DNA of 64,000 nt from Hypomyces perniciosus (taxonomy: Eukaryota > Ascomycota > Sordariomycetes > Hypocreales > Hypocreaceae): NCBI GenBank assembly GCA_008477525.1, contig SPDT01000003.1:2294001-2358000 (forward strand), read 5' to 3'. The notes under the pieces are model-generated. The model did not search any database. It was not told the origin of the DNA and worked only from the letters and a program-made list of their open reading frames with translations. The position numbers and the translations under genes were made by a program. This document shows, piece by piece, positions 2,881-58,014 of the stretch; position 1 is the first letter of the stretch, and each line of letters begins with the position of its first letter.

Positions 2881-3813
2881 TCATCCTTCGAAATGCGCAA
2901 ACCCGTGGTCATCATTATATCGAAATCGTTCAGCCCAGTTGAACAGTTGTCGAAAGTCTCGACACTGATGCGGAGTCCCGTATCCGTCTACCCCGTTTCT
3001 GGGCGCCGTGTTGTCAAATTTAGGTTTGAACGGCTCCAAAGTAGAGTCAGATGTGCATAGGATACTCTCCCTGAGGTAGTCCAAACAGTGGAGTGTGTGA
3101 GAGTGTGTGGCAGTGATGTTTGCTTCCAGAGCCTCGAAGAGGTCGGATTGAAGAAGGAACTATGCAAAGTTTAGTTGAGTTTATTTGTTTTTAACAGAAT
3201 CCAGAAAAGAGGTTGGGTGTAAGAGAATATATTACATACAAGGCAGTGTAGTTGGTGGAATGCAGCTACGGAAAATCGACCGGTGCCATCCGTGCTGGTG
3301 TCTCGGACGAAGTCAGGCACTGGACCTGCAGCCGCGATATTGTCTATCGAAACATACCCCTTTCCCTCTATACGTGTATATTAGAAAAGTGACGAGATGT
3401 TGATGAGGAAAGGGAGCATACTTGGGAAAAGGTTCATCCATGCTTCATACCCTTTCTCTGAGCGTGGATCATCATACACCCTCTCGGGCATGAATGCTTT
3501 TTGAATCGGCCCAACTGAAAGTCCTGATTAGCAAAGGCAACGAGGAATGGACATCATTTTGCTCACGGGGAGGAATATCCAACCCAGGAAGTAATTTTCG
3601 ACTCTCACTTAAGCCAGTTCCATGTTGTATGGTCTTCCACACAACGAGACTTGCTGTGGTCGAAATCACTAAGCTGAGCAAAGTAACAAGAAAAAAATCC
3701 ATTAACGTAAGATTCGCCCTTCTCTTCTCTATCCGCTGTAGAGGGAGATCTTCACTCTTGGAGTCCAATAGCCTATCCTCGTCAGCATCAGAGCCAGAGC
3801 TTAGCCGAGACAT
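2881..3813 (-). CDS. UstYa-like (DUF3328) oxidase 1
   Basis: Four exons on the minus strand, complement(join(2881..3159,3240..3367,3422..3514,3567..3813)), give 248 aa. All junctions are GT-AG and keep frame. Intron 1 (3515-3566) has a good branch site, GCTAATC. The in-frame TTG upstream of 3813 is not used; ATG at 3813 starts MSRLSSGSDADEDRLL. A single membrane segment lies at about residues 38-58 after a Lys/Arg-rich stretch. GPIQKAFMPERVYDDPRSEK and W-M-N-L-F-P-K-G-K-G-Y-V lie near residues 84-119. The two diagnostic HxxHC motifs are H151-Q-L-H-C155 and H177-T-L-H-C181. UstYa proteins are membrane-anchored oxidases that make C-O and C-C cross-links in fungal RiPPs such as ustiloxin and asperipin. 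The gene lies 191 bp downstream of a second UstYa-like gene and 2.7 kb from a repeat-containing precursor, supporting a RiPP role. Substrate is inferred. Confidence 0.88.
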
Positions 3814-4004
3814 GATGCGATCAGGGTGTGGCAGGAGATCCAAGGAAACTAAAGCAGAGAATACCAGAAATCCTCCGCCTAGGGTACAGTAATTAAAAAC
3901 AGTCCCAAGGGGATTACATACTATAAGTAAGCAAGGGGGGTAGGACAGTTTGGAACTATACTAAGAAAGGAAGCTCCCTGGTAAACGATTCCCCATGTAC
4001 GGTT

Positions 4005-4889
4005 TTATGGGGCAATATCTAGGATCTTATCGCCCTCCCTCAACTCCACTTCCACCTTGTCGAGGGTCTGATGCTCCCGGACCCATTCTCGTACTGGCTC
4101 CCAGTCGATACACTTATGATCAGTATTGAAATCCACAAAAGATCCATCCACTCCCTGTTCCTTATCCTTCACCCAGTATTGCCCGAACACCCCCAGGTCG
4201 GGCTTGCACTGGATTGTCTGCCGCAGCATGTCGATGCAGTGCGTTACGTGTTTCACGACGGTTTGCTCGTCTGCACCAAGATGGTGTCCTGGGGAGTCGG
4301 GGGCTGAGTAATACTTGTAGTTGAAGAAAACGGCTTTGCGAATCATGTTGAGGCAGTGCAGGTGGTGATTGAACTCGAAGTAAACTGGGAAGTCTCCCGA
4401 GGAGGTTTTAAGGTGGTCTGAGCTGATGCCAGCATGCCTTGCCTGTGACGAGGACAAGAGAAGAGGTTTTGAGGTGGTACCGAGACCTTCCCATGCTGCG
4501 TCCACAGATGCAGACGGGGGAAGACGGTAAATGGAGGTTGAATTAGCGAGAAATGTTCCGTCGTAGAGGACTGAACGATAATGAATCGGGATATCGATAG
4601 GTGTAGCTAAGAAATAGTCAGCAAAAGGACAAATTGAACGGCAAGACACGAAGGGGAGAGTACGATTTTGTTGCGTATGTCGTACGCAAGTTGCATCGAG
4701 ATAGGAAGTTCTGTGGATGTAGAGGTATGTCCAAATATGCAAGCATAGAGAGACGCCAAGTAAGGCAATCAAGCAGCATATGAGTATATCACGCCCCCGG
4801 TGACTTCGAAATTCATCTTTTGGGCGTGAGGAAGAGCCTAAAAAGGGATCGAGCTCTTCAGCCGGGCTGCCCTCTCTTTCTCTCTCCAT
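4005..4889 (-). CDS. UstYa-like (DUF3328) oxidase 2
   Basis: A single exon of 294 aa. ATG at 4889 (MEREREGSPAEE) was chosen because the three codons upstream begin with TTG. One transmembrane helix lies at about residues 34-57 (DILICCLIALLGVSLCLHIW), so the protein is probably type II with a lumenal catalytic part. SASVDAAWEGLG matches the P-S..VD.AW motif of the family. The two HxxHC motifs are present as HHLHC near residues 175-179, followed by MIRK, and HVTHC near 214-218, followed by IDMLRQ and a downstream Cys. A CIDWEPVREWVREH segment lies near the C-terminus. The family catalyses oxidative cyclisation of RiPP cores, often as two different UstY proteins per cluster (UstYa and UstYb). 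It is head-to-tail with the gene at 2881-3813. That it acts on the YQW repeats encoded at 6527-6873 is inferred. Confidence 0.9.
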   Translation of the reverse strand: MEREREGSPAEELDPFLGSSSRPKDEFRSHRGRDILICCLIALLGVSLCLHIWTYLYIHRTSYLDATCVRHTQQNRTLPFVSCRSICPFADYFLATPIDIPIHYRSVLYDGTFLANSTSIYRLPPSASVDAAWEGLGTTSKPLLLSSSQARHAGISSDHLKTSSGDFPVYFEFNHHLHCLNMIRKAVFFNYKYYSAPDSPGHHLGADEQTVVKHVTHCIDMLRQTIQCKPDLGVFGQYWVKDKEQGVDGSFVDFNTDHKCIDWEPVREWVREHQTLDKVEVELREGDKILDIAP

Positions 4890-5390
4890 GCTGATCAACT
4901 TCCAAATGATGGCAGCAACAATTGCAGGTTATGGTATTGCTCCCATACGACGTGGATGGAGAAGTGTTATTCAGCATCAGTGTCACCCAGTAGATGAAAG
5001 ACCTGTGATGTATCGGCTGGTCAAGGCCAGTTCCTCCAGTAATATTGAGCTCTAGGTATGATATCATGCATATTCCAGGATTACTTGATAGTTGATGCTT
5101 CTGGGAAATTTTACCTTCCATTTGTGAGAACTGTAGTGTTCACTAATGCAGACTTTGAAGGCTTCACAAGGCGTAACACTTTCTATGTATAAAGTTCTTA
5201 AGGATAAGCACTAGTAAGTAGCTTAGCTTAAAATTTCCCCGCAGGAACTTTTGTCCCACCAATACTTACAGGGGCTGTGCAGCCAATAGAAAAGGATGAA
5301 CAGGTTGATATAGAGCTCGAGTTATTCAACCTTTGGTATATTAGTGACAAGGGTTACAAAAGATCCAGCAGCGTAATCAAAGAGTAGATA
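4890..5390. promoter_or_regulatory. Upstream region of the UstYa-like genes
   Basis: About 500 bp of normal-composition DNA between the start of the second UstYa-like gene and the inverted-repeat element. No gene is seen. It must hold the promoter of the minus-strand UstYa pair. No binding site could be named with confidence. Confidence 0.5.
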
Positions 5391-5686
5391 GACCAACTGA
5401 CCCCCCCCTTGTTATCCGACCCCTACAGGGGTCTAAGTACCTGACCTGACCCGGTCGGATGAACTCTAACAGGTCAGTTCAGCCTGACCTGACCCCTATA
5501 ACCTCATCAGACCCTTTAATGCATTTTAGAGGTACTTTGCATATAGGTAATATACCTGTATATATAATGACAGATATATACATAATATAAAAAAAATTGC
5601 TTATATATATATTAAAATTATATAGTTTATTTTTATAATTAAAACTAATTTTAAATTAATTTATATTTATTTTTATATTTATTTTA

Positions 5687-5717
<31 letters not shown>

Positions 5718-6253
5718 TTTATTTTTATATTCATTTTATATTTATTTTAATTTTATTTTTATATTTATTTTATATTTATTTTATATTTATTTTATTTTTA
5801 TTTTTAACTTTAATATATAAATATTATTTCTATAATAAATTTATATATATAAATAAAATATTATATTCAATTATTAAATATAATAAAAATATATAAAAAT
5901 CCTTTTAATTTACGTTAATTAAATAATTAACTACTTAATTAATTGAAAAAATAAACGGATATTTTATATATTTTTATTATTATATATATAAAAAATTATA
6001 TATTCTAGGTTATAGTTAGGTTATAGTTAGGTTAAATAATAAAAGAGATAATAGCTGAATATATATATAAGTATTTTTTTTAAATGTTATATATTTAAAA
6101 GTTACGTGGCTATTTTTATTAAGGGTCTGATAAGGTTATAGGGGTCAGGTCAGGTTAAGCTGACCTGTTAGAGTTCATCCGACCGGGTCAGGTCAGGTAC
6201 TTAGACCCCTGTAGGGGTCGGATGACAAGGGGGGGGGGGAGGGTCAGTTGGTC
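5391..6253. mobile_element. MITE-like element with about 130-bp terminal inverted repeats
   Basis: The left end (5391-about 5520) begins GACCAACTGACCC. It is repeated in inverted orientation at about 6122-6253 with only a few differences and a longer G run on the right (ten or more versus eight). Both arms contain TCCGACCCCTACAGGGGTC and the CTGACCTGACC words. TA flanks both ends (5389-5390 and 6254-6255), as expected for a TA target duplication of Tc1/mariner-type DNA transposons. The roughly 600-bp interior is nearly pure A/T, including degenerate TTTTA/TTTTATTTTA tandem repeats and no ORF, so the element is non-autonomous and its centre has probably been hit by RIP. It sits between the UstYa genes and the peptide precursor, ending 273 bp before the precursor ATG. 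Confidence 0.85.
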
Positions 6254-6526
6254 TATATACTCGTCACAATATCTCACGACTAATCGGCCATCGGGAACTG
6301 ATATCGAAATACGTCATGTGGAGTAAGTATCATCATATGAACAAAAATCATGGGGATCGATTGTATCTACCCACCGCTCCTCCTGAGGTATTTAATACAA
6401 CCTACTAAGGTAGACAGATCTTATAGAAAGGGCAATGCACCTGCTATTTTCCCTATCTTTATCCTCACCCATTGTACTCCATACTGTGACAGATATTTTT
6501 TATCTGCTGGCAATACTTTTACCAAG
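6254..6526 (+). promoter_or_regulatory. Promoter region of the RiPP precursor
   Basis: Unique DNA between the inverted-repeat element and the precursor ATG. A TATA-like TATTTAAT lies at 6389-6396, about 130 bp before the start codon. The start context ACCAAGATG is good. The insertion upstream may have replaced or displaced original control sequences. Confidence 0.4.
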
Positions 6527-6873
6527 ATGAAGTCATCACTTTTCCTCAGCTTCATTACAATTGCGGCTTCAGTCACTGCTGCCCCAGCTCCTGTATATCA
6601 CTCTCTCCATCTCTCTCTTTTTCTTCTCAATGCTTGAATTGCTTACCATTGATCCAGGACGTTGCCAACGTTGCCAGCTACCAATGGAAGAGGGGTACCG
6701 AGAGCACTGACAAGGTTGCCAATTACCAGTGGAAGAAGGATACGGAGAGCACCGACAAGGTTGCCAACTACCAGTGGAAGAGAGGTACTGAGAACACCGA
6801 CAAGGTTGCCAGCTATCAATGGAAAAAGGATACTGAGAACACCGATAAGGTTGCTAATTACCAGTGGAAGTAA
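6527..6873 (+). CDS. Secreted RiPP precursor with five YQW repeats (dikaritin-like)
   Basis: Two exons, join(6527..6592,6658..6873), give 93 aa; the 65-nt intron runs GTATAT to CCAG and keeps frame. Residues 1-20 form a signal peptide (MKSSLFLSFITIAASVTAAP). The rest is five copies of VA(N/S)YQWK. Copies two to five each sit in a 15-residue unit, (G/D)TE(S/N)TDK plus the core plus a dibasic site. Sites alternate KR, KK, KR, KK, and the last copy ends the protein at K93. Tyr falls at 30, 45, 60, 75 and 90, and Trp two residues later. Fungal dikaritin precursors (UstA, PhomA, AprA types) have this design: signal peptide, Kex2-cut repeats, and a Tyr- or Phe-containing core just before the dibasic site. 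Two UstYa-like genes lie 1.6-3.6 kb away. The mature product is unknown. The alternative is an unrelated Kex2-processed secreted repeat protein such as a pheromone or repellent-type peptide. Confidence 0.85.
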
Positions 6874-7818: not shown

Positions 7819-7895
7819 GCTTAGCGATAGCTTCAGTTAACCTATGGTAATCCCCAACACAGACTATAGAAAACACCAAAAACACCAAAAAAAGA

Positions 7896-8014
7896 ACATA
7901 CAACAGCCGGTGTTCGCCAGTGGTCACCCACCTGACTACTAATCTGCCTCTTATTGGCTTGACTATGGGAGAGCGGACGGGATCCCGTATATTCCAATAG
8001 ATATGGTCGTATGT
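7896..8014 (-). rRNA. 5S ribosomal RNA, copy 1
   Basis: A 119-nt minus-strand copy begins ACATACGACCATA and ends GGCTGTTGTATGT, so the two ends form helix I. It contains the conserved GGGATCCCGTCCGCTCTCCC and GATTAGTAGT blocks of Neurospora-type 5S rRNA. The helix III arms (ATTGG with CCAATAAG) still pair. It differs from copy 2 at only a few sites, including AGTCAGGTGG where copy 2 has AGTTGGGTGG. The A-rich flank on its 3' side gives a T-rich Pol III stop on the transcribed strand. It is probably functional or nearly so. Confidence 0.82.
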
Positions 8015-8084
8015 AATAGTCTGTCTCTCAACTCACATTATATCCGCACCAGCACAAACCACAACAAAAAGGCAAAAAAGAAAG

Positions 8085-8203
8085 ACATACAACAGCCGGT
8101 GTTCGCTGGTGGTCACCCACCCAACTACTAATCTGCCTCTCATTGGCTTGACTATGGGAGAGCGGACGGGATCCCGTATATTCCAATGGATATGGTCGTA
8201 TGT
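8085..8203 (-). rRNA. 5S ribosomal RNA, copy 2
   Basis: A 119-nt minus-strand copy with ends that pair (ACATACGAC with GTTGTATGT). The internal promoter region is conserved: GATCCCGTCCGCTCTCCCAT, then AAGCCAATGAGAGGCAGATT and AGTAGTTGGGTGGGTGACCA. The helix III arms CCATTGG and CCAATGAG are complementary. Its 5' end is 189 bp from that of copy 1. Filamentous ascomycete 5S genes are usually dispersed and independent of the rDNA, so a local tandem set is somewhat unusual. Confidence 0.88.
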
Positions 8204-8285
8204 GCTGGTTGGTGTCTCAACTCGCATTATATCCACACCTGCATTCGAAGAACACAACAGTAAAAAAAAAAGGCAAAAAAGGAAG

Positions 8286-8404
8286 ACATACAACAGCCGG
8301 TGTTCGCTGGTGGTCACCCACCCAACTACTAATCTGCCGGTTAGTGGCTTGTCTATGGGGGAGCGGACGGGACCCCGAATTCTCCACTACCTATGGTCGT
8401 ATGT
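8286..8404 (-). rRNA. 5S ribosomal RNA, copy 3
   Basis: A 119-nt minus-strand copy with the same ends and the AGTAGTTGGGTGGGTGACCA block. Helix III differs in sequence from copies 1 and 2 (GGTAGTGG with CCACTAACC) but pairs equally well, so both arms changed together. That argues for selection on structure rather than decay. It is 201 bp from copy 2 and only about 60 bp from the 3' end of the gene at 8467-10068. Confidence 0.88.
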
Positions 8405-8466: not shown

Positions 8467-10068
8467 TCATTTTCCAAAACCTCTCCAGTATGTCGACCTG
8501 CGCATAGCCATTTCCTCGAGAGACCGACAGCCTGGGTGCCAGTGATCTTCTTCATTGCCATATGGCCACATGGCAACAAAGACTATTTCGCCATCCGCAC
8601 ACGGCTGCGGTTTCTTCCATGCAGTCCAGGAAAGCTTGTTCATGAGATCTCGCGTAAGACTTCGACTTGTATTCACGGCCTTTTCCTGTTCTTTGTTGTT
8701 CTCATTCAACTTGATGCGATACGAACTAGCCGTCGAGTCGATAGAAGCCTCGAGAATTAGTGATCGCATGAAGAAAAGCTTGTGGCAGATGTTTTGCATA
8801 ACGGTCTCCAGAGCAGCGTGGCTGAGACCGTCGAAGATGGTCCAACGGTCCTGGGAGAGTAGTGCCTGTTGAAGATGGTGCACCACGCACCGCTCAACCG
8901 CCTCGGCAGTCCTATTCTTCTCAGTTCCAGTCATTAGATTGATATCTCCCGGCAGAGAAGGTGCCTCGTAATACGTGAGTGTCGCTCCCTCTAGCTCGGT
9001 GATGAAGTGTTTGGTGGATAGGCTCGGCGAGGCCATTGATACCAACCGACCCGATAACCGAGAGATGATCATGTCAGTGACATCCTGCCAGTTGACGGTA
9101 AACTTCCTGGGCTGAGTGCAGACATCGCGCACATATGTTCTGATGTCCTTGAGTTCATCCAGCGATGCGGCACCCAATCGAATGAGGTCAGGCCGATCTG
9201 GGTCGGTGTTGGAGATGTTGATGGGAAAGAAAAAGCCCGATACCATGGAGGAGAAGTCCATGTGAACTCGACCTCCGCCCAAGCCGTCATATCGCTCACC
9301 AACGGCCCTGGACCACGAAAAGTACACCATATCGGTCGCACCAATCTTGTCATTCGTGAAGAAGGTTCGGAGGGCTGAATCAAGCTGCAGTCCAGAGCTG
9401 AAGTTGCAGTATATGATCTCAAATCCAACCTCCATTCGCATGATACCATCAAAACCCCACTCTGTAACCATCTCACACAGGCTCTTTGCGCGGCCTAGCT
9501 CATCCATGAAACCATCATGGGTGTTGGTACGGTTCTCGCGAAGAAGATAGTCTTGTGAATCGAGTGTCCCCATGTGTGTCTTGGCCGCAGACATTCCATC
9601 AACGTAAAGGAACCGCACGTCGCGAGTGGTCCGGTAGGTGTGAAAATATCCTCTAATATTACCTTCTTCGTCTTCACCTTCGTGTGTAGCATCCAAGGGC
9701 TTCTGCGCAATAGAGTCACTGGAGCGTCCGCGACCGGGCTGGCTTACTCCCCTCATCGATGATGAAGCGAAAGCCTCTGCGTGCTCGACCTCAAAGGCCA
9801 GCCATTCAGGGCCTGTAGGCGGGTGATCTTGGGTAGTTCCATGGTACAGCGGTGTCCCAGCCGGCATGACGACGGGAATGAAGCCGAAGCCATTGTGGTT
9901 CAGGGAAGAGCCCCATTGTCGACCGGCTGAATGGATCGCGTTGAAGATGTGATGAGCGTTGGCTCTCGCACTCTCGTTGCTGGGTCGAATCGGCTGTCTT
10001 GCTGGAGTCTCCGCAGCAGCAAGAGGAATCGCCAGCAAGGCGAGCAGACCAAGGGATCGGAGGGCCAT
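8467..10068 (-). CDS. Secreted protein of unknown function
   Basis: A single-exon gene of 533 aa. ATG at 10068 opens a clear signal peptide (MALRSLGLLALLAIPLAAAE). Residues about 70-110 contain LYHGTTQDHPPTGPEWLAFE followed by HAEAFA. Later segments include YHTYRTTRDVRFLYVDGMSA and DGLGGGRVHMDFSSMVSGFF. The HGT-like motif recalls the substrate-binding turn of ADP-ribosyltransferase folds, but no full H-Y-E type active site could be traced, so this is only a structural hint. Several Cys residues fit an extracellular protein. I do not recognise the family by name. The stop lies close to 5S copy 3 and the two are on the same strand. Confidence 0.8.
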   Translation of the reverse strand: MALRSLGLLALLAIPLAAAETPARQPIRPSNESARANAHHIFNAIHSAGRQWGSSLNHNGFGFIPVVMPAGTPLYHGTTQDHPPTGPEWLAFEVEHAEAFASSSMRGVSQPGRGRSSDSIAQKPLDATHEGEDEEGNIRGYFHTYRTTRDVRFLYVDGMSAAKTHMGTLDSQDYLLRENRTNTHDGFMDELGRAKSLCEMVTEWGFDGIMRMEVGFEIIYCNFSSGLQLDSALRTFFTNDKIGATDMVYFSWSRAVGERYDGLGGGRVHMDFSSMVSGFFFPINISNTDPDRPDLIRLGAASLDELKDIRTYVRDVCTQPRKFTVNWQDVTDMIISRLSGRLVSMASPSLSTKHFITELEGATLTYYEAPSLPGDINLMTGTEKNRTAEAVERCVVHHLQQALLSQDRWTIFDGLSHAALETVMQNICHKLFFMRSLILEASIDSTASSYRIKLNENNKEQEKAVNTSRSLTRDLMNKLSWTAWKKPQPCADGEIVFVAMWPYGNEEDHWHPGCRSLEEMAMRRSTYWRGFGK

Positions 10069-55815: not shown

Positions 55816-58014
55816 CTACCCTCTGCGGACAATTCTGATAGTACCGAAGTACGGGACCGACAGCTTTACCGAGTGGTTCTCCAGATCCATGATGTAGCCT
55901 TCCTCAGGAACCTCATCCTCGCTGCAGGCCATGTAAGAGACCCCATCTGCCGCTTCCTCCTCGATCTCGACCAGTTTTCTAAGAATCTGGGCACTAGATG
56001 CGCTTATCATGTCGTGCTTTAAGCGTGCCATGTTTTCCATACTCTCAATAACGTGCTCTACCATTGCTAAATCTGTTGGCCGCTGGTGTTCGAGCATGTT
56101 TTCGCGACCAAGGAGATGGCCCTCGAGGTGCGCTAATAGCAGAGTCATGGAGGCGCAAAAGGCCTTGAAGTCTGCGCCATGGCAGCAAAACGGCACATGG
56201 CTGAGGGTCCGATAAACAAAGAACCTGGACAAGATCTCGCGGCTCGAGTTGAGAGTAGTGGATTTGCTGTATGTGACATTAAAGCAAGTCGAGATGGACC
56301 TACCTTGATCTATGGTCGTTGACTTATCAGCCCTCCGCATTATGTATGGCATGTGTAGAAGAACCAGTAGGTAATGTTGATTGATTTGTGCGAGAAGCTT
56401 CGCTGTCTCCTCCACGATATCCACATCCGTTAGTGTGTTCGATAATGATGGGATAATCCACCACTTCAAAGGTAGAGATCGCATTGCCCGCTTCAATTCA
56501 TAGTCGATTTCTTGAGTCTCCGCATAGACCTTACACATCCCTTCGCAGCGCATGCGATGATTCCTGGTAATAATATGACCCATAATCACAGCATGCATGC
56601 GCTCTAGTTTTCCCAATGGCACCTCAGTCGCTAGCAAGTGCTCGCTGGCAAAGCTATTATCCATAATGGAGAGGGGATTGGACAGCATCAAGGAGAGAGA
56701 TCGATCTCCGTAAACAAGACGGAACCAAGCAAATTCCTTTGCGGAAGAAGTACAATGATCGGTGTCCACCTGCTGTTGGGGTATATGAAGGCCCATCAAG
56801 GATGCAATACCCAGTGCGCGCCGATATTTGAGCGAAGCAAGCCGTATGTTTCCCAGGTTGAATTGGTACAGGCCTTCCATCATGAGAGCTTCAAGCCCTG
56901 TAAGCGAACTTACAAGCAGGTCCTGGGAGGTTACATGGGACGCCGCCTCAAAGTAGTAATTTGCGATGTCGCGAGGGTGCCCTCTCAAGTTCAAATCTGA
57001 GATATCGGACGTCTTGTCTAATCGCTGTAGGCTGATTGCTAACTGGAGAAGCTGACGGGCCAAGGCGGCAGGGGGTGAGTTCGGAGGTGGCAGGGTGAAC
57101 TTATGGAAAGCTTCTTGGGCGCCAGATGATGAAGGAAGGACTCGATAAGGCTGTCGAAGAGTCTGGATAGGCAAAGTGAATTTCCCACGGCGCATGATAA
57201 GTGATGCGTTGTCTGGAGATGGGAAGAAGGAGTATAGTCTGCGACTCAGCGAGTGGTCCCCCAATGCTCCTGGGACTGGGAACAGCGTCTCTCGACCGGA
57301 CCAATGACTTTCAGGTTGTCCAATAGAGTGCGCATGTAAAGGCGAATAAAAGCGTCTGACGTTGCCAACTACGTCTCTCTGGAGAGAATCAACGGCAGGA
57401 GAATGGCTCAATGTCGAAAAGATAGCAGGTTCTACACAACCAGTCGTAGCTTGAGCCGACCTGCTGTTGCTATGCAGCTCGTCGTTGCACACTGAGAATC
57501 CATGCTCGACGCTCTGGGATGTCATTGCTTTCTTGCACACATCCGCAGAACGTATATGACCGCCGGTTGGGGCACTTGATGTCTGCCGAACTAGTTGGTC
57601 GACTAAGGCCTCGACATGGACGATGCGTTTCGCGACTTCATCATAGCGTCCGCGAATCCATTCCTCGGAGTCTTCTTCAGGTTGATGTTGGGTGATACAT
57701 TGACTTCCCCGGCGCCTACAGGGGGTGCAACTGGCGCTCAACTTAGAACGAAAGTCACATCGAATCTTGCGCCGCTTACACTCCCAGCAGCTGAACGTTC
57801 CCTTTCTCAGCTTCCGTCTCTTTGTGGCGGACTCATCAAGGGACGTTGCGGTGCTTAGGTCAGCCCCGAGAGGGACGGACGGCGACAGCATTTTGGCTGA
57901 TAATTCCCTCTCTTCAAGAAAGCGCTGGATTACGCGTCGAGATTCAGGGTCTGTAGTGCACAATAGTATCCGAGGTCCGGATCGAAGAAGACTAATGGTA
58001 TTTGAACTAGCCAT
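55816..58014 (-). CDS. Zn2Cys6 fungal transcription factor
   Basis: An uninterrupted ORF of 732 aa with ATG at 58014. The binuclear zinc cluster is complete: Cys76, 79, 86, 96, 99 and 106 in CWECKRRKIRC and CTPCRRRGSQC, with the usual six-residue spacings, preceded by a basic KRRKLRK. A linker and short coiled coil follow (VAKRIVHVEALVDQLVRQ). The middle region contains the fungal-specific TF domain, with EAASHVTSQDLLVSSLTGLE, ALMMEGLYQFNLGNIRLASL and KYRRALGIASLMGLHIPQQQ. The protein would bind CGG-type half-sites as a dimer and control nearby or catabolic genes. A GTAGGT to ACAG pair at about 56290-56325 would shift frame if spliced, so no intron is assumed. It is convergent with the aldo/keto reductase. 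Confidence 0.92.
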   Translation of the reverse strand: MASSNTISLLRSGPRILLCTTDPESRRVIQRFLEERELSAKMLSPSVPLGADLSTATSLDESATKRRKLRKGTFSCWECKRRKIRCDFRSKLSASCTPCRRRGSQCITQHQPEEDSEEWIRGRYDEVAKRIVHVEALVDQLVRQTSSAPTGGHIRSADVCKKAMTSQSVEHGFSVCNDELHSNSRSAQATTGCVEPAIFSTLSHSPAVDSLQRDVVGNVRRFYSPLHAHSIGQPESHWSGRETLFPVPGALGDHSLSRRLYSFFPSPDNASLIMRRGKFTLPIQTLRQPYRVLPSSSGAQEAFHKFTLPPPNSPPAALARQLLQLAISLQRLDKTSDISDLNLRGHPRDIANYYFEAASHVTSQDLLVSSLTGLEALMMEGLYQFNLGNIRLASLKYRRALGIASLMGLHIPQQQVDTDHCTSSAKEFAWFRLVYGDRSLSLMLSNPLSIMDNSFASEHLLATEVPLGKLERMHAVIMGHIITRNHRMRCEGMCKVYAETQEIDYELKRAMRSLPLKWWIIPSLSNTLTDVDIVEETAKLLAQINQHYLLVLLHMPYIMRRADKSTTIDQGRSISTCFNVTYSKSTTLNSSREILSRFFVYRTLSHVPFCCHGADFKAFCASMTLLLAHLEGHLLGRENMLEHQRPTDLAMVEHVIESMENMARLKHDMISASSAQILRKLVEIEEEAADGVSYMACSEDEVPEEGYIMDLENHSVKLSVPYFGTIRIVRRG

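What the first reader, a model, noticed from the sequence alone, without database searches (positions are those of the whole stretch)
2881..6873. Compact dikaritin-type RiPP cluster: YQW-repeat precursor with two UstYa-like oxidases
Seen: a 93-residue secreted protein with five VA(N/S)YQWK units, each of the first four followed by KR or KK, and two neighbouring proteins with paired HxxHC motifs and one membrane helix. Known: in ustiloxin, phomopsin, asperipin and epichloecyclin pathways such precursors are cut by Kex2 and cross-linked at Tyr or Phe by UstYa proteins. Inference: the core is a short (N/S)YQW-containing peptide, probably cyclised through Tyr and perhaps Trp. I know of no described dikaritin with a YQW core, and no tyrosinase, methyltransferase or transporter is visible here, so this would be a minimal cluster.
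Basis: partly seen in the sequence, partly recalled or inferred. Interest (0 to 1): 0.93.

Follow-up and report, generated by a model that had tools for sequence, protein, structure and literature searches.

The report
Fungal YQW-repeat peptide gene cluster
A fungus that appears related to Trichoderma carries three neighbouring genes that look like a small factory for a secreted, modified peptide built around the residues Tyr-Gln-Trp; the product and its role are not yet known.

Summary
The window lies in a 44 Mb fungal genome. A spliced gene (6527-6873) encodes a 93-residue secreted-type precursor with five VA(N/S)YQWK units, followed by KR, KK, KR, KK and finally K-stop. Two divergently transcribed neighbours (4005-4889, 2881-3813) match Pfam UstYa/DUF3328 and carry two HxxHC motifs and one hydrophobic helix each. 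Repeat units differ far more at synonymous than at replacement sites. The one precursor homologue found, in Trichoderma novae-zelandiae, has a similar leader and three VASY(Q/E)W units, and its listed contig has the same length as that of a UstYa-1 homologue. No tyrosinase match lies on this contig; 25 further window frames gave no methyltransferase, transporter or peptidase. Best reading: a minimal dikaritin-type RiPP locus in which Kex2/Kex1 release peptides ending in YQW and two copper-type UstYa oxidases modify them, probably at Tyr; a Tyr-Trp bond is possible but unproven. As a class it is a new member of a known kind: 1758 KEP genes beside DUF3328 genes were counted in 2020. No expression, chemistry or function has been shown.

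The parts
6527..6873 (+). Precursor gene (exons 6527-6592 and 6658-6873): 93-aa protein with a signal-type leader and five VA(N/S)YQWK units
   Evidence: Spliced translation; homologue P0001 in Trichoderma novae-zelandiae, E 7.6e-20; only this gene's two exons match in the own genome
6593..6657 (+). Intron of the precursor gene (GT...AG, 65 bp)
   Evidence: Sequence and frame
6670..6690 (+). Core unit 1, VASYQWK, followed by R (KR site)
6715..6735 (+). Core unit 2, VANYQWK, followed by K (KK site)
6760..6780 (+). Core unit 3, VANYQWK, followed by R (KR site)
6805..6825 (+). Core unit 4, VASYQWK, followed by K (KK site)
6850..6870 (+). Core unit 5, VANYQWK, then stop
4005..4889 (-). UstYa-1 oxidase gene (exons 4664-4889 and 4005-4606; intron 4607-4663), 275 aa, HHLHC and HVTHC
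   Evidence: Pfam PF11807 150.5 bits; model; 12 relatives at 61-84% identity over 68-100% of the query, nine of them named: Trichoderma, Xylogone, Mariannaea
2881..3813 (-). UstYa-2 oxidase gene (exons 3567-3813, 3422-3514, 3240-3367, 2881-3159), 248 aa, HQLHC and HTLHC
   Evidence: Pfam PF11807 84.1 bits; model; ten Trichoderma relatives at 72-81% identity over 94-100% of the query
5382..6262 (.). AT-rich element with long terminal inverted repeats between UstYa-1 and the precursor; probably an insertion, not part of the pathway
   Evidence: Arms 5401-5516/6121-6236, 96% complementary, and 5382-5408/6236-6262, 93%; the arm matches three further places in the genome

Best explanation
This is a compact dikaritin-type RiPP locus. 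Shown by sequence: a repeat precursor with a leader and dibasic sites, two distinct UstYa-family genes beside it, open reading frames throughout, and an excess of synonymous over replacement differences among the repeats. Inferred: the precursor enters the secretory pathway. Kex2 cuts after each KR/KK and Kex1 removes the basic residues, giving peptides that end in YQW (a first one starting near APAPDV, then 13-mers such as GTESTDKVANYQW, if every site is cut). The two membrane-anchored UstYa enzymes, each with a binuclear copper centre made by the HxxHC pair, oxidise the peptide in the secretory lumen with O2. Most likely Tyr is one partner of a ring-forming cross-link; Trp two residues on, or Val three residues before, is the other. 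General peptidases may trim the TEST/TENT arm. Estimates: processed and UstYa-modified peptide 0.8; a Tyr-linked ring 0.6; Trp as the ring partner 0.3.
For: Gene structure and motifs. Chance controls. Between repeat units 2-5, pS is 0.38-0.89 and pN 0.03-0.11 in 6 of 6 comparisons; codon differences within Y-Q-W-K over the five units are all synonymous. The T. novae-zelandiae precursor P0001 has a similar leader (16 of the first 23 residues identical by eye), and V, A, Y, W and K are kept in 8 of 8 units over both species, Q in 7 of 8. P0001 and the UstYa-1 homologue P0005 of the same species list a contig of 2,178,755 bases. Two well-separated orthologous groups with compatible branching. One kexin-type P-domain match in the genome. 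Ustiloxin B is barely made without KexB (PMC4740483, passages); the DUF3328 enzyme CctR is copper-dependent (PMC12435403, parts 1-2 of 3).
Against: No expression, mass or knock-out data. Two of four sites here, and all three in P0001, are KK, which classical Kex2 cuts less well than KR (recalled). V, A and K are as conserved as Y and W, so conservation does not single out cross-linked residues. The precursor search returned one homologue only, although UstYa-1 and UstYa-2 searches returned 28 and 42; short genes are often not annotated, but that was not tested. An element with terminal inverted repeats sits between UstYa-1 and the precursor and may have disturbed a shared promoter region.
Confidence: 0.74

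Rival explanations
1. A linear Kex2-processed repeat peptide (pheromone- or hormone-like signal) that happens to lie beside two UstYa genes acting on something else.
For: Most KEP genes counted in 2020 (6120 of 7878) have no DUF3328 neighbour (PMC7329392, section 7). The repeat with a strongly conserved C-terminal half resembles a signalling peptide in form.
Against: In the same survey nearly all KEPs annotated as mating factors or pheromones lacked DUF3328 neighbours, with three exceptions (abstract). Tyr is in every unit, as is commoner among DUF3328-linked KEPs (65.6% against 38.2%).
Confidence: 0.13
2. The UstYa enzymes modify the peptide without making a ring, for example by hydroxylating or desaturating Trp, Tyr or Val.
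For: DUF3328 proteins are implicated in hydroxylation, halogenation, macrocyclisation and isomerisation; CctR is a hydroxylase (PMC12435403). Phomopsin UstYa homologues also desaturate residues (PMC10512285, passages).
Against: DUF3328 proteins are stated to be indispensable for ring formation in ustiloxins, asperipin-2a and phomopsins (PMC7329392, section 7), and the products of the other two repeat-precursor pathways, epichloecyclin and victorin, are cyclic too (PMC9233826, passages). With two UstYa proteins here, one of each kind is possible.
Confidence: 0.2
3. KK sites are not cut; only KR is, giving peptides of about 30 residues with two YQW cores each.
For: Sites alternate KR, KK, KR, KK and the next residue alternates G and D, as if the unit of duplication were 30 residues. 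Yeast Kex2 is described as cutting at KR and RR (PMC4740483, passage).
Against: The T. novae-zelandiae precursor has only KK sites yet keeps the repeats. KK is counted as a Kex2 site in KEP work (PMC7329392 section 13; PMC9769878 passages).
Confidence: 0.12
4. An unprocessed repetitive secreted protein, the repeats serving a structural or other role.
For: No processing was shown here; secreted repeat proteins are common in fungi (recalled).
Against: Dibasic residues at all four junctions, the last unit ending K-stop in the same register, and linkage to UstYa genes.
Confidence: 0.05

Closest known systems
Ustiloxin B pathway (UstA, UstYa, UstYb)
   Same: Signal peptide, repeats with KR doublets, two UstYa-type oxidases, Tyr in the core; production nearly lost without KexB (PMC4740483, passages)
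   Different: Core is YAIG/YVIG, not YQW; the A. flavus cluster has 15 genes (abstract) and a tyrosinase is needed (PMC7329392); no such set was seen around this locus
Asperipin-2a pathway
   Same: Repeat precursor with a DUF3328 oxidase; cross-links at Tyr; cluster lacks a peptidase gene (PMC9233826 and PMC12048977, passages)
   Different: One DUF3328 gene instead of two (PMC7329392); bicyclic, with linkages from two internal Tyr side chains; no Trp in the core (recalled)
Epichloecyclin (GigA) and victorin
   Same: Repeat precursors; cyclic products joining an N-terminal Ile to an internal Tyr, or a C-terminal Phe to an internal Leu (PMC9233826, passages)
   Different: Different cores; victorin is chlorinated and its cluster encodes peptidases; here an aromatic Trp would be the C-terminal residue after trimming
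KEP genes beside DUF3328 genes in general (Umemura 2020)
   Same: Meets the survey's repeat and site criteria (section 13), with two DUF3328 genes next to it
   Different: Whether this sequence is among the 838 listed types or 2560 stand-alone KEPs could not be checked (supplements not readable here)
Bacterial biarylitides with MxYxW cores (P450)
   Same: Tyr and Trp at i and i+2 in a minimal core; a Tyr-Trp cross-link was formed by such P450s on Trp-bearing peptides (PMC13417212, passages)
   Different: Unrelated enzyme (haem P450) and precursor; likeness of spacing only

Membership tests
Dikaritin RiPP pathway | Precursor with N-terminal leader and repeated core units | tested here: met
   Five units after a hydrophobic leader; leader judged from the sequence, no signal-peptide program was run, and its best 19-residue hydropathy is 1.54
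Dikaritin RiPP pathway | Kex2-type dibasic sites between units | tested here: met
   KR, KK, KR, KK; KR and KK are among the sites counted in the KEP survey
Dikaritin RiPP pathway | UstYa/DUF3328 protein(s), the class-defining enzyme, with two HxxHC motifs | tested here: met
   Both genes over the Pfam cut-off, two motifs each
Dikaritin RiPP pathway | Tyrosinase, methyltransferase, and transporter or peptidase in the cluster (older five-gene definition, since relaxed; PMC12048977 passages) | tested here: not met
   No tyrosinase match on contig C8; no methyltransferase, transporter or peptidase among 25 further window frames, a partial scan. The relaxed definition does not require them
Dikaritin RiPP pathway | Oxidatively cross-linked product from the repeat core | not testable with these tools
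   Needs LC-MS/MS and NMR
Kex2-processed repeat protein (KEP) | Signal peptide and at least 3 tandem repeats of at least 8 residues between KR/KK/RK/RR sites | tested here: met
   Units 2-4 lie between dibasic sites, 13 residues each; the signal peptide is by eye only
Binuclear copper DUF3328 enzyme | HxxHC(x)nHxxHC pair on paired helices after one membrane helix | tested here: inconclusive
   Motifs present. Models of the relatives P0003 and P0030 put the two motifs on two helices after a long N-terminal helix, but mean pLDDT is only 57.4 and 58.3. Copper not testable here

The most novel reading that the evidence does not exclude
The copper UstYa pair makes a Tyr-x-Trp aromatic cross-link (a three-residue ring at the C-terminus of the peptide): a fungal, copper-based counterpart of the bacterial P450 biarylitides, run by only three genes, with its enzyme pair kept from Trichoderma to Xylogone.
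Probability: 0.25. Interest if true: 0.75.

Novelty: new member of a known kind. Interest (0 to 1): 0.45.

Why it matters
Only five dikaritins had been reported by 2022 (PMC10512285, passages), although 1758 KEP genes beside DUF3328 genes were counted (PMC7329392). A three-gene locus with a fixed Tyr-x-Trp core is a small and practical test case for what a pair of copper UstYa enzymes does without a tyrosinase or methyltransferase. The enzyme pair occurs in several Trichoderma species, a genus used in agriculture (recalled), so the peptide may be an overlooked secreted product of a well-studied genus.

Tried and rejected
Precursor paralogues in the own genome: none; the search matched only the two exons of this gene. 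YQW-type strings in the literature: 39 papers hold at least one of three strings; the 20 listed are unrelated by title, the other 19 were not seen. The Trichoderma RiPP-mining paper PMC7099791 was considered as a prior description: its main text has no YQW and its cluster 55 is a different locus (predicted core KKAHPYEEP, no UstYa among the listed genes; outline, passages and sections 9-10). A solved structure of a relative by sequence, UstYa-1 only: one row, E 0.31, an antibody chain, taken as chance; UstYa-2 was not searched. Fold search was not run because both models are of low confidence. NCBIfam was not searched: the only attempt failed. Placement against the known UstYa, UstYb, asperipin, phomopsin and epichloecyclin enzymes was not tested.
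Full report
Where it is. The window is part of contig C8 of a 44.0 Mb assembly in 23 contigs. In both UstYa groups the window sequence branches just outside the orthologous Trichoderma sequences, so it is probably a close relative of that genus (inference).

The precursor. Joining 6527-6592 to 6658-6873 gives a 93-residue protein: leader MKSSLFLSFITIAASVTAAPAP, then five VA(N/S)YQWK units at 15-residue spacing, followed by KR, KK, KR, KK and lastly K-stop. No signal-peptide program was run. The YQWK codon pattern occurs 5 times in the window against 0.05 expected, and 0 of 100 shuffles reach 5. A longer form occurs 4 times in the genome, all 4 in this gene. A scan for repeats beside dibasic sites scores 12 here and 0 in 60 of 60 simulated windows. 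It also gave one spurious score of 2 over the 5S rRNA repeats. Run on the seven stretches around the other UstYa matches of this genome, the scan found repeat genes in 2 of 7 (see noticed in passing).

Constraint. Among units 2-5, 6 of 6 pairwise comparisons give pS 0.38-0.89 and pN 0.03-0.11; unit 1 was left out because its upstream part is leader and intron. Over all five units the codon differences within Y-Q-W-K are synonymous. The site numbers are small (about 8 synonymous sites per unit) and the comparisons are not independent. The protein search returned one homologue from one candidate: T. novae-zelandiae J3F83DRAFT_727605 (P0001, E 7.6e-20, 70% identity over 69% of the query). Its leader is similar (16 of the first 23 residues identical by eye) and its units are VASYQW, VASYQW and VASYEW, each followed by KK. 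Over the 8 units of both species V, A, Y, W and K are kept in 8 of 8, Q in 7 of 8. This does not tell which residues are cross-linked.

The two UstYa genes. UstYa-1 (4005-4889, minus) has one 57-bp intron and 275 residues; UstYa-2 (2881-3813, minus) has three introns and 248 residues. Both pass Pfam UstYa (150.5 and 84.1 bits; cut-off 25). Of the homologues returned, 27 of 28 (UstYa-1; the other has none) and 41 of 42 (UstYa-2; the other has one) have at least two HxxHC motifs. The gene models rest on splice signals, frame and relatives, not on transcripts. One of ten printed UstYa-1 relatives, P0002, has an insert where the intron is.

Linkage. Of the 12 closest UstYa-1 hits (P0002-P0013), 9 carry an organism name. 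Locus tags are consecutive in T. asperelloides (005107/005108) and two apart in SZMC 28014 (380027/380029). For the other four (T. arundinaceum, T. novae-zelandiae, T. compactum, Mariannaea) no UstYa-2 row of that name was listed; rows are clusters at 90% identity, so this is not evidence of absence. Same length stands in for same contig; the DNA could not be fetched.

Trees. A maximum-likelihood tree of 46 rows (20 of 28 UstYa-1 hits, 24 of 42 UstYa-2 hits, both window proteins; the choice was mine) separates the two groups with 100/100 support. The program rooted it at the midpoint for drawing only and warned of long branches (P0014 among them). In both groups Xylogone, a leotiomycete, is the nearest relative of window plus Trichoderma (forks 94/86 and 96/79, neither reaching the program's star). 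In UstYa-1, Mariannaea, of the Hypocreales, branches outside Xylogone. This hints at transfer of the pair between classes but does not prove it. T. simmonsii and Cladobotryum UstYa-2 hits fall in another branch, probably paralogues.

Surroundings. To the left the DNA is AT-rich (8% GC at 1-500; flank read). Between UstYa-1 and the precursor lies an 881-bp AT-rich element with long terminal inverted repeats whose arm matches three further places in the genome. To the right are three 5S rRNA genes, then ordinary genes. I scanned 25 further window frames, chosen from the ORF lists. Of the 20 gave a match at E 0.01 or better (APH, Sod_Fe_N, Sld5, PRKCSH, Cnn_1N, DPBB_1/KWL1, MBOAT_2, Aldo_ket_red; APH, Cnn_1N, DPBB_1 and KWL1 below their cut-offs) and 12 none. 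Of the 5, 3 matched (Zn_clus with weak Fungal_trans at 55816-58014, weak MBOAT_2, DUF7896) and 2 did not. Tyrosinase matches are on C22 and C16 only. Genes of several short exons may have been missed.

Mechanism. Ustiloxin B is barely made without KexB (PMC4740483, passages). Kex1 trimming and KK as a site are as described for KEPs (PMC9769878, passages). CctR showed a DUF3328 enzyme to be a membrane-anchored, binuclear-copper, O2-using homodimer whose HxxHC residues are essential (PMC12435403, parts 1-2 of 3). My models of one relative of each enzyme have the same order of elements (long N-terminal helix, then two helices bearing the motifs), but mean pLDDT is only 57.4 and 58.3. By analogy, the released YQW peptide would be oxidised in the secretory lumen. 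In ustiloxins and phomopsins Tyr is joined to an internal Ile; in epichloecyclin an N-terminal Ile to an internal Tyr; in victorin a C-terminal Phe to a Leu (PMC9233826, passages). Here the residue two after Tyr is Trp, which would stand at the C-terminus, and Val is three before it. Tyr-Trp is the more novel option; Tyr-Val is closer to precedent.

Prior knowledge. Umemura 2020 counted 7878 KEPs, 1758 of them with DUF3328 neighbours, and gives a W content rate of 20.5% for those 1758 (PMC7329392: abstract, sections 6 (part 1), 7 and 13). So a Trp-bearing KEP beside UstYa genes is not in itself unusual. Eight paper searches listed no paper that, by title and abstract start, describes a YQW-type core or this locus. 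Six of these lists were incomplete (20 of 21, 21 of 24, 30 of 3019, 20 of 39, 30 of 401, 12 of 53). Supplementary tables could not be read and most subscription papers are not held.

Verdict. Observation confirmed. Class assignment supported. Cross-link chemistry and biological role remain open. I score it as a new member of a known kind, with a testable and somewhat unusual core.

Noticed in passing
G000 C23:5067280-5067625 (locus L016): A second repeat-precursor candidate: six NNYPKYGTAGDFEAVN units, the first five followed by (N/D)EKVKR, near UstYa matches at C23:5069181-5069687 and 5073819-5074040.
   Followed up: partly
G000 C4:2127370-2127480 (locus L021): A third, weaker candidate: three SADESYLPQ units, two followed by KRAD, near a UstYa match at C4:2125617-2126102; no leader was looked for.
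   Followed up: partly
window 5382-6262: AT-rich element with terminal inverted repeats between UstYa-1 and the precursor; its arm also matches two places on C10 and, in part, one on C22.
   Followed up: partly
window 7895-8404: Three 5S rRNA genes in a row on the minus strand.
   Followed up: yes
window 8467-10068: Intact 533-aa reading frame on the minus strand with a signal-type leader by eye and no Pfam match.
   Followed up: no
UstYa-1 and UstYa-2 trees: Xylogone (Leotiomycetes) carries both UstYa homologues, and in UstYa-1 it lies closer to Trichoderma than Mariannaea of the Hypocreales does, hinting at transfer of the pair.
   Followed up: partly
PMC10459490, one table passage: A T. reesei UstYa-like gene (105220) appears in a differential-expression table of an epl2 study; whether it is an orthologue of either gene here was not tested.
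   Followed up: no
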